From contig JALONM010000041.1 in assembly GCA_025454925.1 (NCBI GenBank), forward strand, positions 1 to 33,454: a stretch of 33,454 nucleotides of DNA, given 5' to 3'. The position numbers were made by a program, and so were the translations under genes. Shown here in pieces: positions 21,549 through 27,859 of this stretch; the stretch's first letter is position 1; the number at the start of each line of letters is the position of its first letter. The notes under the pieces are model-generated. The model searched no databases and was not told the origin of the DNA. It worked only from the letters and a program-made list of their open reading frames with translations. The stretch comes from Cytophagaceae bacterium. Its GTDB lineage: Bacteria > Bacteroidota > Bacteroidia > Cytophagales > Cytophagaceae.

Positions 21549-21932
21549 ATGATATTCGGCATTGGGACAGATATTATTGAAGTAGACAGAATTCGAAAGA
21601 GCATCGAAAGCAGTTCTTTCCTAGACAAAATATTTACGGAAGCAGAACGGGCTTACTGTGGATCAAAGATAAATGCCGCCGAACATTTCGCCGTCCGGTA
21701 TGCCGCCAAAGAAGCCTTCTTTAAAGCACTCGGCACCGGATACCGCTTAGGAATGGCATTCCACGAGATTGAGATCTGTCACGACGATCTAGGAAAACCT
21801 CATATTCAATTGCATGGAGAAACACAAAAGTTCCTTCAGGAAAAAGGAAACTTCCATATTCACATTTCTTTATCCCATGTAAAACAAACCGCCTTGGCAA
21901 TGGTGATGATTGAACATCACACCAAGAGCTAG
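21549..21932 (+). CDS. acpS: holo-[acyl-carrier-protein] synthase
   Basis: 127 aa. AcpS transfers the 4'-phosphopantetheine arm of CoA to a serine of apo-ACP for fatty-acid synthesis. Metal-binding residues are Asp8 (GTDIIEVDRI) and Glu55 (RYAAKEAFFKALGTG), and the C-terminal HISLSHVKQTALAMV strand is typical. It is 89 bases after mgtE in the same direction. The gap could hold its own promoter, but no full TAnnTTTG box is present. Confidence 0.96.
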   Translation: MIFGIGTDIIEVDRIRKSIESSSFLDKIFTEAERAYCGSKINAAEHFAVRYAAKEAFFKALGTGYRLGMAFHEIEICHDDLGKPHIQLHGETQKFLQEKGNFHIHISLSHVKQTALAMVMIEHHTKS

Positions 21933-22046: not shown

Positions 22047-22373
22047 ATGCTTACTACTGAAATACTGAAAGAAGCAATTTCCTTAGCACAGCAAAAAAGT
22101 AAAGAGGAATTGAGTGCACACTTCGAAGATAAAGGAGTAAGTAAAGAGACTATACAATTGCTCCTGGATGAAATAAAGAAATTTGAATACCTGAAGCGTC
22201 GTAAAAAAGGAATACAATTATTGGCCAGTGGATGCCTATTGTTGTTGATGGGATTTATATTAACAGTCGTTCTTTTCCATCGTGGCGGTGCGTTTGATGC
22301 TATTATGTATTCATTTTCCGTAGTTGGCATAGGATTGTTGTTTTGGGGGATGATAGAATTTTTGGGTTGGTAA
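22047..22373 (+). CDS. small membrane protein with two transmembrane helices
   Basis: 108 aa, not assigned to a named family. The N-terminal half is charged and helical (residues 1-54, rich in Lys and Glu, possibly coiled coil), followed by KRRKKG, then two hydrophobic segments at about 56-78 and 84-106. Both termini are predicted to face the cytoplasm by the positive-inside rule. It begins 114 bases after acpS and ends 39 bases before the tape-measure-like gene, so the latter pair may be co-transcribed. Confidence 0.75.
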   Translation: MLTTEILKEAISLAQQKSKEELSAHFEDKGVSKETIQLLLDEIKKFEYLKRRKKGIQLLASGCLLLLMGFILTVVLFHRGGAFDAIMYSFSVVGIGLLFWGMIEFLGW

Positions 22374-22412
22374 AATCTACCGGCAAAAAACTAAAATGTA
22401 AATACGATTTGA

Positions 22413-25010
22413 GTGGCACCTGCTTCCGTCATAGAAAACTTACAGTTTGAATTCCAAACAGGCAACGAAAAAGGAACCAGCTTTTTACAAGACGTATCAG
22501 ATTTTGCCCAACATCATTTGGTAGGAGTCATAGAAGAAGTGCTGGATGAGCTTGAGCTGGATGGATACCTGGTCGTTCCTTCAATTGAAATTCATCTCGA
22601 GGTAATCGATTGGAGTAACCGTGATTTATTGAAACATAAACTGCGCACAGCATTACTAAATCAGCTGCACTTTGAAATAGTAAGTAAATCCCATCTCATT
22701 TTACCGTTGAATGAATCGGGAGAAGACGGAAACGATTCTTCAACACAGAAGACCAAATGGCAAGAAGACCGTTGGGCTCATTACCTGGTGTATGGCCATT
22801 TTCCCTGGTGGGATGCGGCAACTCAGGATGTTTCGTTTTCATTAGAAAAAGATTTAAAGCGCTACCTGGAACGCTCTCCCAATGCCTTTCTTTCCTTTCT
22901 TCAATCACAAAAAAAGGAACCTTATACCTTACGGATCATCTTTCAACGACTCAAAACTATTCTTGGTCAATTGTATTCCGGAGTTTTACAAAAAATACTC
23001 TCCCTCCCTTTACGACTGGAGCAAATAGAAGAATTGAGCAGGCTGCATAACTATGTTAAGGATTTGCAACAGGTAGAAGCCCGGCATATGGAGCAATCGG
23101 TTTGGATCGTGTTGATTCAAACGAATACTTTCAATGCAGATGAACTGATCGAAGCATTGGCAAAATTGTATCAATGGCCTACAGAGCTTGTATGGAAAGT
23201 TTTGCTGAACCAATCAGTCCTCTTAGAAACGCAATCCCCCTGGCTGTTTGCCTACTTGCAACAAGCCACTTGTAAGGTTTCTGAGCTTCCGGAATTCTTA
23301 AAAAATAAACTTCCGGAATGGTATGAAAAAGCGTTGCGCACCGTCCAAGCACTTACACCATACCTCTCTTTATCAAAAGAGAAATTGATTCAATTGCTTT
23401 TTGAAAATTCTTTTCAAAAAAGAAATATCCAGGGGCTGCTTTTAGCCTTGGAAATGGCCGAAGGGAAAAACTCTTCCCATGAAATCCTAAAGGCCCTGGA
23501 GTCCTTTTGGAATGCGGAGTTGCATGCCGATTTCAAAAACGAATATGCGTACACTCAACTCAGCCAATTGTTATCAGAACAAAAAATTCTGGAAGAAGAA
23601 ACCGAAAAGCTTCCGGAATTGGATTGGATTTTACGATATCTGAAAACAGGGAGCTTGCCTTGGGTGCAACGCAACAGCACATTGGAGGAGTTGGAAGCAT
23701 TTATCATGGGGGTATACGATGCACAACCAGCCTTTTTTATCCAGTATTTCAAAAAAGTCGATGTATATCGCTTTCCACAAATTTGGTCGCGAATTCAAAA
23801 GCAGTTTTCTCCAGCATTGGTGGAGGTATTTCGCAAATCCTTATCCATTGAAGCTTTTGAAGATAAACAACACTACAAAGAGCACCGGGAAAAAATACTC
23901 GCATTGTTGTTTACCCAAGGACTTATTCCATGGAAAGACTTGCTCGACAACAATATTGACCATGCTCTCGAAGTACTGATAACCTTTTACAGGGAAGATC
24001 CGGTATTTTTCCGAAGAGCATTACGCGAAAGTAAATTATTAGAACATCCAGATAGTAAATCGAAAGTAATTTTTATTCTGGGAGAAAGAGCCTGGCAGTT
24101 TTTAGAAGAGCAATATGGTGAAATTTCGTCTCAGTCTGGCGAGCTCACTGCCTTAAAACTCGAAGACTTGTTGAGTAATTTTAATGAGTTGGCATTTCAA
24201 TTAGAGTACTTCTTCCAGCACCGGCGTTTTAGTCGAGCGGTTATTCCAAGCATCGAAAAGATTTTGAGTGAATTAATCAGCATCAAAACGAATGAGTCCA
24301 AACTAATGCTGGCAGCATTTTATCAGCGATATCCGGATTCAATCCAAATGTTGTTGCCGTCGTCCCAACTGGAGCTTTTAAAAACCTTATTGGCAGGATT
24401 CACCCAAGAAGATGGTTCCGATGAAGAAGAGGAAGAACTTCCTGAAATTCTTAAAAAGAAAACAGGCAGCAGCGATCCTGAATTGGAAAAATTATTGCCG
24501 ACGGGAACTACGTTGTATATTAAAAATGCAGGATTGGTAATTTTACATCCGTTCATTAATCGGTTTTTCAATCTTCTGAAGCTGACTGAAAAGAAAAAAT
24601 TTATCGACTCCGAGGCTCAGGAAAAAGCAGTACACATGCTTCAGTATTTGATTTTTGAAAAAAAGGATACTCCTGAATTTGAATTGACCTTAAATAAAAT
24701 TCTTTGCGGCATGGCTCCTGTAATGCCGGTGATGAAGGAAATTGAAGTAAGCACAGAAGAACACGAATTATCGCTAAGTTTATTAAAAGGCGTTATTGAA
24801 AACTGGCCAATTTTAAAAAACACAAGTATAGAAAATTTCAGGGCTAGTTTTTTACTGCGGGAAGGGAAACTTACGAAGGAGCCGGATGGATGGCGCTTGA
24901 GGGTGGAAGAAAAAGGATTCGACATCCTGATGAAGCAACTTCCATGGTCTATTAATACCATTAAACTTCCGTGGATGAATGAAGTCATTCATGTAGATTG
25001 GCAGTCGTAA
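22413..25010 (+). CDS. contractile injection system tape measure-like protein (lone copy)
   Basis: 865 aa from GTG 22413; no ATG is near. The pattern fits the CIS tape-measure family (CIS_TMP, Afp14-like). An N-terminal IENLQFEFQTGNEKG segment leads into an amphipathic helix region. HFPWW (129-133) and the repeat-like LKTGSLPWV near 415 match the family's TG-x-LPW units. The C-terminal block has NAGLVILHPFINRFF near 705-720 and LNKILCGMAP near 760. In known systems this protein sets tail length and helps to assemble the inner tube. Here no sheath, tube, baseplate, ATPase or fibre gene is nearby: both neighbours are ordinary genes. No signal peptide is seen. The family call is by eye and good; the function in isolation is unknown. 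Confidence 0.82.
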   Translation: MAPASVIENLQFEFQTGNEKGTSFLQDVSDFAQHHLVGVIEEVLDELELDGYLVVPSIEIHLEVIDWSNRDLLKHKLRTALLNQLHFEIVSKSHLILPLNESGEDGNDSSTQKTKWQEDRWAHYLVYGHFPWWDAATQDVSFSLEKDLKRYLERSPNAFLSFLQSQKKEPYTLRIIFQRLKTILGQLYSGVLQKILSLPLRLEQIEELSRLHNYVKDLQQVEARHMEQSVWIVLIQTNTFNADELIEALAKLYQWPTELVWKVLLNQSVLLETQSPWLFAYLQQATCKVSELPEFLKNKLPEWYEKALRTVQALTPYLSLSKEKLIQLLFENSFQKRNIQGLLLALEMAEGKNSSHEILKALESFWNAELHADFKNEYAYTQLSQLLSEQKILEEETEKLPELDWILRYLKTGSLPWVQRNSTLEELEAFIMGVYDAQPAFFIQYFKKVDVYRFPQIWSRIQKQFSPALVEVFRKSLSIEAFEDKQHYKEHREKILALLFTQGLIPWKDLLDNNIDHALEVLITFYREDPVFFRRALRESKLLEHPDSKSKVIFILGERAWQFLEEQYGEISSQSGELTALKLEDLLSNFNELAFQLEYFFQHRRFSRAVIPSIEKILSELISIKTNESKLMLAAFYQRYPDSIQMLLPSSQLELLKTLLAGFTQEDGSDEEEEELPEILKKKTGSSDPELEKLLPTGTTLYIKNAGLVILHPFINRFFNLLKLTEKKKFIDSEAQEKAVHMLQYLIFEKKDTPEFELTLNKILCGMAPVMPVMKEIEVSTEEHELSLSLLKGVIENWPILKNTSIENFRASFLLREGKLTKEPDGWRLRVEEKGFDILMKQLPWSINTIKLPWMNEVIHVDWQS

Positions 25011-25042: not shown

Positions 25043-27787
25043 TTATTGCTTCACCACCCGAATTGATTTTTGTTGAGAGGTTGTTCGAATGTGAAGGATG
25101 TATTGGCCTGGACTTAGTTTTTGCCCTAAAGTATACCATTGATTCAACTGGAATACGGGCAGACTATATACCGTTTCTCCCAAACTATTATACACCGTTA
25201 ATGCAGCAGTACCTTCAGAAGCGAAGCTACCCAAAACCTGAAATTCTTCCGAAGATGGATTGGGAAATACGGTAAGTTCTAAAGAACCTGTATTCCATTC
25301 GACCATCACAAAGTTGGTAAATCGTCCAACTCCCGACTCATCGGCCTGGAGCAGGCGGTAATAAGATATACCTTGCAAGGGTGATGCATCAAGGAATTCA
25401 TAGTGTTGTTTGGTATTGGAATTACCAGCCGCTTTATGAACACCGATGCTTACAAAATCTCGCCCATTGTGCGAGCGCTGAATTTCAAATTTATCAGATC
25501 CATTTTCAAACAAAGTAGCCCAGGAAACCAGCACTCCTTTTTCTGGAATAGATTGTGCATCCAAATATTGATAGGAAACTGGTAAAGCCTCGTACAAGTC
25601 TGCCTGCCAGAGCCCTCTTCCATAAGTCGCCGCCCTGATTTTCCCAGAAGGGTAATGAATTTCCAACTCCCTTACTTCTACATTAGGCAACCCATTATCG
25701 TAAGCTACCCAGTTTGTCATGCCTGCATTTCGATAAAATACACCGTTGTTGGTTCCCACATATAATCCATTATCGCTGCCGTTGTGATAGACAATACAAT
25801 TCATGCTGCCATTGAGCATGCTGGTATAATTTATCCAATTGATGCCTCCATCCGATGATGTAAAAATTCTACCACCAGTACAGGCCGCCGCCACCTGCAA
25901 ATGGTTGGAAGGATGAACGCTTAAATAGTTGATACTTCCGGAAGGCACGTTGGATGTGTTCCAATTAAGACCTCCGTTCAAACTGCGGTAAAGTGTTCCT
26001 CCTTTACTGGCATAGATAACATTTGAATTGGAGGGTGCCAGGGCTATTTCTTCAAAATTGGCACCACTAAGTTCTGTAAGCGCCACCCAGGTACTTCCGC
26101 CATCGGTGCTTTTAAAAACATTTCGATACCCCACATGCAACACGTTGGGGGCATTATGGTCAATCACAAATGGAGTTACCCATTCGCCATCCGTTTCAGG
26201 TGCAATTAAAGATACCCTGGAATTTCCACCATCGGTACTTTTGTATAAACTTCCCATTTGAGAAGTTCCATACACAATGCTATGATCGCTGGGATCGAAA
26301 AATGATTCCATTCCATCTGCACCCAGCCAATCTACCCAGCCGGCAGGCCTTCGAATGCTGGTGCCATTATCCTGTGCCCCTGCTGTAACCAAATGATTGC
26401 TGGTAGTAGCAGATCCCAACCTGTAAAACTGCCGTATGCCCAGGCCAACAGATAAATCTATCCAATTATCTCCTTCGTCATTAGATTTATAAATTCCACC
26501 GTCCGTCCCAGCATACACCACTTCATCTCTATATTCTAGCACATGCACATCGGCATGGTTATAGCCACGTGAATTGGGTAAACTCCATTCTGTTTGGGCT
26601 TCGAAAGACAGGCCACCATCAACCGATCGCCAGACGATAATGCCTCCAATCCAGATTTTATTAGGATCGGTAGGACTTACACACATTGCCATATCATAGC
26701 CCGCCTGCCCTCCAGGCTCATCACCGTAAGGAGAATAACCAAAATAGTTAGTGCCGGAAGCTGCATCGCCAGTAACTTGTACCTGAAAACTTAATCCAGC
26801 ATCGGAGGATCGGTATAAGTAACCAAATTCATCCCCTCTGGCGGATACCATGTAGACCAGGTTAGGATTGGCGGGAGTAACGGAAATAAAACTTCTATCG
26901 GAGGCTACTATACCATTGTTGATTTGCTGAAATGCAAGGCCTCCATTGGTGGAACGGAAAAAATCTTTTCCGCAGGCGTACATTACCGTGGGATCATTGG
27001 GCTTAAATTCGATATCGTGAATGGGAGCATTGGTAATCAAAGTCCAAGTGGCACCTTGATTTACACTTCTATACAAACCAGTAGAAGTGCCTGCGAAAAG
27101 AGTAGAAGGAATGCTCGGATGTATCACGATGCAGTTCACCATTCCATTAATACCCATGTTGGCAGTATTCCACGACTCTCCACCATCATTGGAACGCATT
27201 AAGCGGGCGGCACTGCAACCGAGGTATACGATATCGTGATTAGAATAGTCTACTTCAATTGCCGACACCTGCAACGAAGAAAAATCATCGGTAAGCACCT
27301 CCCAGGTATTCCCTCCATTTTTGGTTTTCCAACAACCACCGCCCGGAGAACCTACATAAATAATTCTATCGTTGGTAGGATCAATTTCTATGGCCATTAA
27401 TCTTCCGACTCCCGGATTCCATCCGCTGCTGCGATTCCAGGCTTTTGGGCCTAATTCTTCCCAATTACTGGCCGTGATGCGTGATTTTGGATCTATTGAA
27501 ACACTGCGCAGGTAACGTTCATATTCTTGCCATTCCTTTTCGGCACTGATTCGATTTCCATTGGAATCTACTCGAAACTGCTGAAGGTATTTCCAACGTT
27601 GGTATTGTTTGTATCCAGTACCTTTTCCTTTGCTTTTATGTTGGTAAAAGGAATCAAGGGTAGAAACCACTTCATAATAATTCCTGGATTCATCATTCAT
27701 AAGATCCCACCAGAGCTGAGCGTTAGCTGGCAGGAAGAATACGCATGAAAAAATCAAAACTAAATAATATGTAATTCTACGAATCAT
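25043..27787 (-). CDS. T9SS-secreted protein with BNR/sortilin-type repeats
   Basis: About 914 aa. The ATG at 27787 starts a signal peptide (MIRRITYYLVLIFSCVFFLP then ANAQ); an upstream in-frame codon at 27823 adds 12 residues. The middle (about 110-720) is built of some ten BNR-type Asp-box units of the form S-x-D-G-G-x-x-W (for example KTKNGGNTW, RSNDGGESW, KSTDGGSTW, TSSDGGINW), as in VPS10/sortilin and sialidase-like propellers. The C-terminus is a T9SS sorting domain (VFPNPSSEEFQV to the end), preceded by an Ig/FN3-like region. No catalytic residues of a known hydrolase are visible, so it may bind surfaces or glycans. It converges on the tape-measure-like gene, with 32 bases between. Confidence 0.87.
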   Translation of the reverse strand: MIRRITYYLVLIFSCVFFLPANAQLWWDLMNDESRNYYEVVSTLDSFYQHKSKGKGTGYKQYQRWKYLQQFRVDSNGNRISAEKEWQEYERYLRSVSIDPKSRITASNWEELGPKAWNRSSGWNPGVGRLMAIEIDPTNDRIIYVGSPGGGCWKTKNGGNTWEVLTDDFSSLQVSAIEVDYSNHDIVYLGCSAARLMRSNDGGESWNTANMGINGMVNCIVIHPSIPSTLFAGTSTGLYRSVNQGATWTLITNAPIHDIEFKPNDPTVMYACGKDFFRSTNGGLAFQQINNGIVASDRSFISVTPANPNLVYMVSARGDEFGYLYRSSDAGLSFQVQVTGDAASGTNYFGYSPYGDEPGGQAGYDMAMCVSPTDPNKIWIGGIIVWRSVDGGLSFEAQTEWSLPNSRGYNHADVHVLEYRDEVVYAGTDGGIYKSNDEGDNWIDLSVGLGIRQFYRLGSATTSNHLVTAGAQDNGTSIRRPAGWVDWLGADGMESFFDPSDHSIVYGTSQMGSLYKSTDGGNSRVSLIAPETDGEWVTPFVIDHNAPNVLHVGYRNVFKSTDGGSTWVALTELSGANFEEIALAPSNSNVIYASKGGTLYRSLNGGLNWNTSNVPSGSINYLSVHPSNHLQVAAACTGGRIFTSSDGGINWINYTSMLNGSMNCIVYHNGSDNGLYVGTNNGVFYRNAGMTNWVAYDNGLPNVEVRELEIHYPSGKIRAATYGRGLWQADLYEALPVSYQYLDAQSIPEKGVLVSWATLFENGSDKFEIQRSHNGRDFVSIGVHKAAGNSNTKQHYEFLDASPLQGISYYRLLQADESGVGRFTNFVMVEWNTGSLELTVFPNPSSEEFQVLGSFASEGTAALTVYNSLGETVYSLPVFQLNQWYTLGQKLSPGQYILHIRTTSQQKSIRVVKQ

Positions 27788-27859
27788 TGAGTTTGTGCCT
27801 CTACACAACACGAATATAAGCAATTAGCGGATATATTATCAATTATTTAAACCATATAA

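What the first reader, a model, noticed from the sequence alone, without database searches (positions are those of the whole stretch)
22047..25010. Lone contractile-injection-system tape-measure gene with a small membrane-protein partner
The 865-aa product has the pattern of CIS tape-measure proteins (TG-x-LPW units and the C-terminal NAGLVILHPF / LNKILCG block). In described systems this gene lies inside a cluster with sheath, tube, baseplate, spike and AAA+ ATPase genes. Here its neighbours are acpS and a BNR protein, with only a 108-aa two-helix membrane protein 39 bases upstream. Either the CIS locus of this genome is split, or the gene is an orphan that has been reused, perhaps with the membrane protein. 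The family call is by eye; the missing cluster is seen directly in this window.
Basis: partly seen in the sequence, partly recalled or inferred. Interest (0 to 1): 0.7.

Follow-up and report, generated by a model that had tools for sequence, protein, structure and literature searches.

The report
Tape-measure gene of a split injector
The gene encodes the length ruler of a phage-tail-like injection machine whose other parts are encoded elsewhere in the same bacterial genome, an arrangement that seems to have arisen several times in this order and that surveys looking only for intact gene clusters can overlook.

Summary
Observation confirmed. ORF 22413-25010 (+), 865 aa, is a contractile-injection-system (CIS) tape-measure protein (TMP): Pfam CIS_TMP, E 2.1e-101, the only CIS_TMP gene found in the 4.52-Mb genome. 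No other CIS gene was recognised in this 33-kb contig. It is not an orphan. Contig C58 of the same genome carries sheath, two tubes, CIS_tube, spike, PAAR, gp25, baseplate J and an Afp12-like gene; C89 carries a lone Pvc16_N gene. Afp15-like AAA+ ATPase genes, two of them beside eCIS_core genes, lie on further contigs. So the CIS is split. In the nearest relatives (Sporocytophaga-type) TMP still sits between Afp12-like and ATPase genes. On a 51-row sheath tree of this order (Cytophagales), TMP lies away from the sheath cluster in 22 of 47 scored genomes, with at least 5 state changes, one origin rejected. The 108-aa membrane protein is not a conserved partner. Split CIS genes are in print for Cardinium (PMC3486910). 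New variant of a known kind, moderate interest.

The parts
22413..25010 (+). CIS tape-measure protein, 865 aa (Afp14/Cis14 type), GTG start
   Evidence: Pfam CIS_TMP E 2.1e-101; only CIS_TMP gene found in the genome; among the loci then held its best BLAST hit is the TMP of G006, whose sheath is also nearest
24393..25007 (+). conserved C-terminal part of the TMP (last 205 aa), confidently folded from about residue 40 of this piece
   Evidence: AlphaFold2 with 36 rows: pLDDT 89.7, pTM 0.82; Foldseek PDB: none at E<=0.001; VIA-align: 0 of 997 chains at Z>=2
22047..22373 (+). 108-aa protein with two hydrophobic stretches, 39 bp upstream; neighbour, probably not a CIS component
   Evidence: no Pfam match over cut-off and no NCBIfam match; not in other TMP loci scanned; weak homologues in genomes without a TMP match
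21549..21932 (+). acpS-like gene, unrelated neighbour
   Evidence: in 9 relatives the roughly 1.5-kb flanks hold no homologue of the 108-aa gene or the TMP
25043..27823 (-). convergent BNR/sortilin-repeat protein with T9SS sorting tail, unrelated neighbour
   Evidence: Pfam

Best explanation
The gene is the tape-measure gene of this bacterium's contractile injection system, moved out of the structural cluster. Shown: the family, the single copy, a CIS structural cluster in the same genome, and linked order (Afp12-like, TMP, AAA+ ATPase) in the nearest relatives and in outgroups. Inferred: the protein is made in trans, joins the baseplate hub, and sets the length of the tube that polymerises around it, as reported for Afp14 (recalled); the globular C-terminal part docks at one end and the variable middle spans the tube. 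Inferred: its own locus lets a protein needed in few copies per particle be expressed apart from sheath and tube. The 108-aa neighbour is a bystander of the insertion site.
For: CIS_TMP over both ends of the profile. C58 cluster: Phage_sheath_1C 3.4e-15 over its cut-off (Phage_sheath_1 1.4e-5, below its cut-off), gp19 1e-44 and 2.3e-32, CIS_tube 1.5e-17, PAAR 7.2e-24, gp25 7.9e-23, Baseplate_J 1.8e-5 over its cut-off. Pvc16_N on C89. C19, C58, C89 and C37 stretches are 42-43% GC with tetranucleotide r 0.96-0.98 among themselves, against 0.83-0.90 with stretches of G006, G022 and G005. G000 and the G006/G011/G015 sheaths form one group (99% SH-aLRT); the best BLAST hit of the TMP was G006's, 51% over 172 aa. 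G022 is one 8.98-Mb contig with TMP at 6.88 Mb and sheath at 1.10 Mb, so detachment is not only an assembly effect. 18 genomes have a TMP with no recognised CIS gene in the fetched flanks and 4 have TMP with a few CIS genes away from the sheath.
Against: No expression or structural data. G000 is a draft, and no Afp15 orthologue could be assigned: 11 matches to the G006 ATPase, 8 of them strong, best identity 40%. The TMP C-terminal tree is poorly resolved and does not itself join G000 with G006. Promoter and terminator scans found nothing above chance near the gene.
Confidence: 0.9

Rival explanations
1. Orphan tape-measure gene reused for another task with the 108-aa membrane protein, for instance as a membrane-tethered coiled-coil scaffold.
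For: 39-bp spacing on the same strand; no other CIS gene recognised in 33 kb.
Against: A CIS with no other TMP found is in the genome; both ends of the family profile are kept; the pair was seen in no other TMP locus scanned and the membrane protein has weak homologues where no TMP is found.
Confidence: 0.04
2. Assembly or binning artefact: the TMP belongs to another organism or was joined wrongly into C19.
For: Draft of 135 contigs; the TMP gene has 40.1% GC against 42.9% for the contig.
Against: Composition of C19, C58 and C89 agrees; completeness 99.84, contamination 0.22; TMP and sheath lie far apart on one contig in G022 (8.98 Mb, one contig), G077 (4.9-Mb contig), G132 (887-kb contig) and G071 (57 kb apart).
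Confidence: 0.03
3. Relic of a decaying CIS: the TMP was cut off when the system broke up and the rest is being lost.
For: No Afp15 orthologue at the cluster end; Pvc16_N also dislocated.
Against: The structural genes on C58 are open frames of lengths like those of relatives as far as the contig goes; 17 of 18 lone TMPs are single open frames (and, for five; G218's is in two); 4 eCIS_core matches are present.
Confidence: 0.05

Closest known systems
CIS_TMP family PF19268 (Afp14/Pvc14/Cis14 tape-measure proteins)
   Same: Both ends of the profile match; a single copy here; C-terminal block kept
   Different: Gene is outside the structural cluster; 865 aa against 463 profile positions, with an expanded middle
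T6SSiv of Amoebophilus asiaticus and AFP-like system of Cardinium hertigii (Amoebophilaceae)
   Same: Same order by inference; CIS genes in several genome regions. PMC3486910 (passages read) states 16 AFP-like genes in five genome regions in Cardinium cEper1; G132's contig length (887130) equals that chromosome, and its TMP is 0.35 Mb from the sheath
   Different: Those are reduced genomes of intracellular symbionts; here the genome is 4.5 Mb, and 13 of the 18 lone-TMP genomes are of other families, 3.0-9.0 Mb
Sporocytophaga-type CIS clusters; AlgoCIS of Algoriphagus machipongonensis
   Same: Much the same structural gene set in the same phylum; the Sporocytophaga TMP (L217) follows the Afp12-like gene by 7 bp and is followed by the ATPase at 114 bp
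   Different: One cluster with TMP inside (for AlgoCIS from recall; passages of PMC8894135 speak of an 18-ORF gene cluster)

Membership tests
CIS_TMP (PF19268) | Profile match over the curated cut-off | tested here: met
   340.9 bits against 27.8
CIS_TMP (PF19268) | Both the N-terminal and the C-terminal part of the profile present in one intact frame | tested here: met
   profile 3-234 and 25-463, no stops inside
CIS_TMP (PF19268) | Sets tube length in an assembled particle | not testable with these tools
   needs deletion and microscopy; for Afp14 known from Rybakova 2015 (recalled; its title was seen in a reference list)
eCIS/T6SSiv-type CIS | Sheath, tube, spike, PAAR, gp25 and baseplate J genes in the genome | tested here: met
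   C58; the spike was named by BLAST to relatives and place, not by Pfam
eCIS/T6SSiv-type CIS | TMP and Pvc16 genes within the structural cluster | tested here: not met
   TMP on C19, Pvc16_N on C89, sheath on C58
eCIS/T6SSiv-type CIS | Dedicated Afp15-type AAA+ ATPase | tested here: inconclusive
   11 matches in the genome, 8 strong, best identity 40%, none on C58 or C19
eCIS/T6SSiv-type CIS | eCIS_core (DUF4157) cargo-type proteins in the genome | tested here: met
   4 matches, on C16, C37, C34 and C9
T6SSiv (membrane-anchored) as against eCIS (released) | Mode of action | not testable with these tools
   no membrane-complex or lysis test was made
Orphan, reused TMP | No CIS elsewhere in the genome | tested here: not met

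The most novel reading that the evidence does not exclude
In much of the Cytophagales the CIS is a distributed kit: a structural cluster, an unlinked tape-measure gene, sometimes an unlinked Pvc16 gene, and several separate loader-ATPase/cargo islands, comparable to orphan vgrG islands of T6SS. Repeated release of the TMP from the operon decouples particle length and number from sheath and tube expression, so that length control can evolve or be regulated on its own.
Probability: 0.3. Interest if true: 0.6.

Novelty: new variant of a known kind. Interest (0 to 1): 0.42.

Why it matters
CIS surveys define systems by linkage. [quoted passage not shown] PMC12210884 (one methods section read) takes the best-scoring contig per genome. 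Systems like this one can be missed or scored as lacking a TMP; I did not test how often. The recurrent relocation also gives natural cases in which the ruler gene can be expressed apart from the parts that it measures.

Tried and rejected
Membrane-protein partnership: searched in 98 genomes, 6 with a match at E<=0.01 including the own genome. The two best others, G008 (69% complete) and G028, have no CIS_TMP match; their roughly 3.2-kb loci were compared with the window's proteins only, and just the 108-aa match showed. Rejected as a conserved partner.

Conserved site of relocation: 156 neighbour ORFs of 22 TMP loci (the 18 lone, G071 and G101 of the partial ones, and the unresolved G081 and G150) were compared. 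Seventeen match rows at E 1e-5: several are between near relatives (G019/G143; G132/G144/G218; G081/G218); the rest are scattered single pairs, among them BNR proteins near G000 and G094 (24.9%), a 73% pair of G094 and G144, a 53% pair of G077 and G105 and a 44% pair of G101 and G144. No common landing site seen.

GxxPW motif count as a length ladder: counts do not follow TMP length over 55 TMP frames. Dropped.

Phage origin: tblastn against 50,697 phage records, no match at 1e-5. No PDB sequence relative at E 0.1. PADLOC: no hit for the TMP or the 108-aa protein; the ATPase resembles IetA-type AAA proteins. A first scan of genome contigs with the single TMP found no relative.

Promoters and terminators: counts at chance level.

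Trees and scoring: 53 genomes went into the script. G317 (partial sheath) and G066 (several sheaths) were then left out, giving 51 rows; G018 (sheath in two frames) and G276 (159-aa sheath piece at a contig end, TMP linked) were fetched but never entered. G049, G081, G150 and G029 are in the tree but not scored; G049 and G066 have TMP plus ATPase on another, short contig than the sheath. G063 and G114 were scored as linked although their TMP is rearranged. G101 was scored D, but an Afp12-like gene lies 3.1 kb from its TMP, so I count it as partial (18 lone + 4 partial); with the 18 lone rows against the 25 linked rows the count is still 5. G054 is a loose case: its TMP is about 10 kb from the Pvc16_N end of its cluster, on the other strand, with unrelated genes between. 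G105, G139, G168 and G183 have under 5 kb on one side of the TMP. TMP C-terminal tree: 49 rows, 6 changes, 26 of 46 inner branches open.

Full report
What is there. The window is the entire contig C19 (33,454 bp) of a 135-contig, 4.52-Mb genome, 99.84% complete and 0.22% contaminated. ORF 22413-25010 (+), 865 aa, matches CIS_TMP (PF19268) at E 2.1e-101. The two stretches cover the N-terminal and the C-terminal parts of the profile and the frame is open throughout. It is the only CIS_TMP gene found in the genome. The 108-aa ORF 22047-22373 has no Pfam match over a cut-off and no NCBIfam match.

The rest of the machine. Contig C58 (63,841 bp) carries, from about 47.1 kb to its end: a GH18 protein, a 342-aa protein, sheath, two gp19-type tube proteins, CIS_tube, a spike protein (named by BLAST to relatives and position), PAAR, gp25, baseplate J (1247 aa), a 244-aa protein and a 931-aa Afp12-like protein ('Afp12-like' is by position and size, with no Pfam hit). 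The contig ends 270 bp later. Pvc16_N, which in G006 lies between the GH18 and the 342-aa genes, is on C89 in G000 with no other labelled CIS gene in the 20 kb read there. C19, C58, C89 and C37 agree in composition. Since C19 is bounded, the gene is at least 8.4 kb from any C58 gene.

Loader ATPases and cargo. A search with the Afp15-type ATPase of G006 gives 11 matches in G000, none on C19 or C58; 8 have E below 1e-56, the other three lie in frames of 683 and 909 aa and are probably other AAA proteins. The ATPase on C37 lies 25 bp upstream of an eCIS_core plus Het-C protein, and the one on C9 diverges from an eCIS_core protein. Two more eCIS_core proteins lie on C34 and C16, not beside these ATPases in the stretches read; the one on C16 also has a transglycosylase (SLT) domain. 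Their role as CIS loaders and cargo is inferred from the families; Pvc15 as a loader is from PMC11495950 (abstract and passages read).

Relatives. Of 59 genomes of the relatives set, own genome included, 14 have CIS_TMP; all 14 have a sheath C-terminal-domain match and a Pvc16_N match. In G006, G011, G015 and G018 of the same family TMP lies about 12 kb from the sheath and is followed within about 120 bp by the ATPase. Named loci identify this type as Sporocytophaga, order Cytophagales (L217, whose contig length equals that of G006's). In G022, a single 8.98-Mb contig, TMP is at 6.88 Mb and the sheath at 1.10 Mb.

Order-wide sample. In a sample of 390 genomes of the order, 103 have a CIS_TMP match, 102 over the cut-off; the list of places was capped. 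The sheath search took 80 of the 103: 68 with long, unclear or double TMPs and 12 with short ones; 78 of 80 had a sheath. The 23 left out were 21 with frames of 452-667 aa, one broken and one below the cut-off. I read loci of 55 of the 80 and entered 53; the others were not scored. Result: 18 TMPs with no recognised CIS gene in the fetched flanks, and 4 with a few CIS genes but away from the sheath (G071, G101, G106, G109). Five of the 18 are in family f21, that of Cardinium; the other 13 are in genomes of 3.0-9.0 Mb. The 12 genomes added for short TMPs have TMP and sheath on one contig and strand within 21 kb in 12 of 12, by the coordinates. Four more of the 80 have short frames: G062, G189 and G352 are also within 19 kb on the same strand, while in G362 the two are 17 kb apart on opposite strands.

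History. On a 51-row sheath tree (quick method) the away/linked state needs at least 5 changes. G000 groups with the linked G006/G011/G015 at 99% SH-aLRT. Holding all 22 away rows together is rejected (AU p 6.6e-106), with the caution that the group was named by trait and long branches are present. If the linked order cannot be rebuilt, 9 separate away clades are implied. On the poorly resolved TMP tree the count is 6. Neighbours of these TMPs are mostly not shared. The G006 order (Afp12-like, TMP, ATPase) equals that of outgroups such as G129, G175 and G185, so the detached state in G000 is best read as derived; this is inference.

Outside the order. Of 423 named loci found with a 6-row C-terminal alignment the best 80 were kept; 61 have over 5 kb on both sides of the TMP. 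No core CIS gene was labelled in 6 of these 61: 4 of 11 Cytophagales, 2 of 6 without a named order, and 0 of 44 of other orders (the split by order is my tally). Ten further loci without a core gene have shorter flanks and are not counted. Five of the six have the contig length of a genome already counted above, so they are not independent. The sixth, L233, is a 176-aa stand-alone C-terminal domain in a genome that has a sheath.

The 108-aa protein. It is not found in any other TMP locus scanned. Of 98 genomes, 6 match at E<=0.01 including the own genome; the two best others, G008 and G028, have no CIS_TMP match. In nine relatives the roughly 1.5-kb flanks of the acpS homologue hold neither the 108-aa gene nor a TMP. 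I read it as part of the local gene set.

How it works. Shown: sequence family, copy number, co-occurrence, order in relatives. Inferred: a ruler inside the tube supplied in trans. At about 0.15 nm per residue (a recalled helix value) 865 aa would span roughly 130 nm at most; this is no measurement. The C-terminal 205 aa fold confidently, apart from the first 30-40 residues, into a mixed globular domain (pLDDT 89.7, pTM 0.82) with no PDB neighbour found. Its invariant residues in 36 rows (K, L, W, R, D, W) make it the likely docking part.

What is known. Split CIS gene sets are in print for Cardinium: 16 AFP-like genes in five genome regions (PMC3486910, passages read). G132 of this survey has the same chromosome length. 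For A. asiaticus I read passages on expression only (PMC8831229); the Cardinium papers PMC12560110 and PMC12342168 (passages read) mention the T6SSiv without its gene order. I found no paper on relocation of the tape-measure gene in other Cytophagales with the searches; that is not proof that none exists, since most subscription papers, the 2017 Science paper among them, are not held. Hence: new variant of a known kind.

Noticed in passing
L194:5442-9783 (C37) and L195:2-3805 (C9); also L189, L190, L191, L192, L193: Several Afp15-like AAA+ ATPase genes scattered in the same genome; two sit directly beside eCIS_core cargo-like genes. They look like loader/cargo islands unlinked to the CIS cluster.
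   Followed up: partly
L069:10690-11238 (G000 C89): Pvc16_N gene, next to the 342-aa gene in G006, has no labelled CIS gene near it in this genome.
   Followed up: yes
L004:12126-13940, L115:10604-12466 and other loci labelled GH18 (14 ORF labels): A GH18-type protein lies near CIS genes in several fetched loci (Pfam run on two only); the G000 one has hydrophobic C-terminal stretches by eye. It may be a CIS accessory.
   Followed up: partly
window 24393-25007: The C-terminal domain of the TMP folds confidently but has no Foldseek match at E<=0.001 and no chain at Z>=2 in the second look; a candidate new fold.
   Followed up: partly
L233:10007-10537: Stand-alone 176-aa CIS_TMP C-terminal domain with no recognised CIS gene in about 10 kb on either side, in a Bacteroidetes MAG that has a sheath elsewhere.
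   Followed up: partly
L189:4748-6902 (G000 C93): IS66-like transposase genes (by eye) lie between two AAA+ ATPase genes; a possible cause of dispersal.
   Followed up: no
G354:C1:480953-482074: CIS_TMP match with three stops inside, in a genome with no sheath match: probably a decayed CIS.
   Followed up: no
L113:9698-17711 and L152: In G063 and G114 the TMP is divergent from Pvc16 and sits between Pvc16 and the Afp12-like gene: a rearranged but still linked order.
   Followed up: partly
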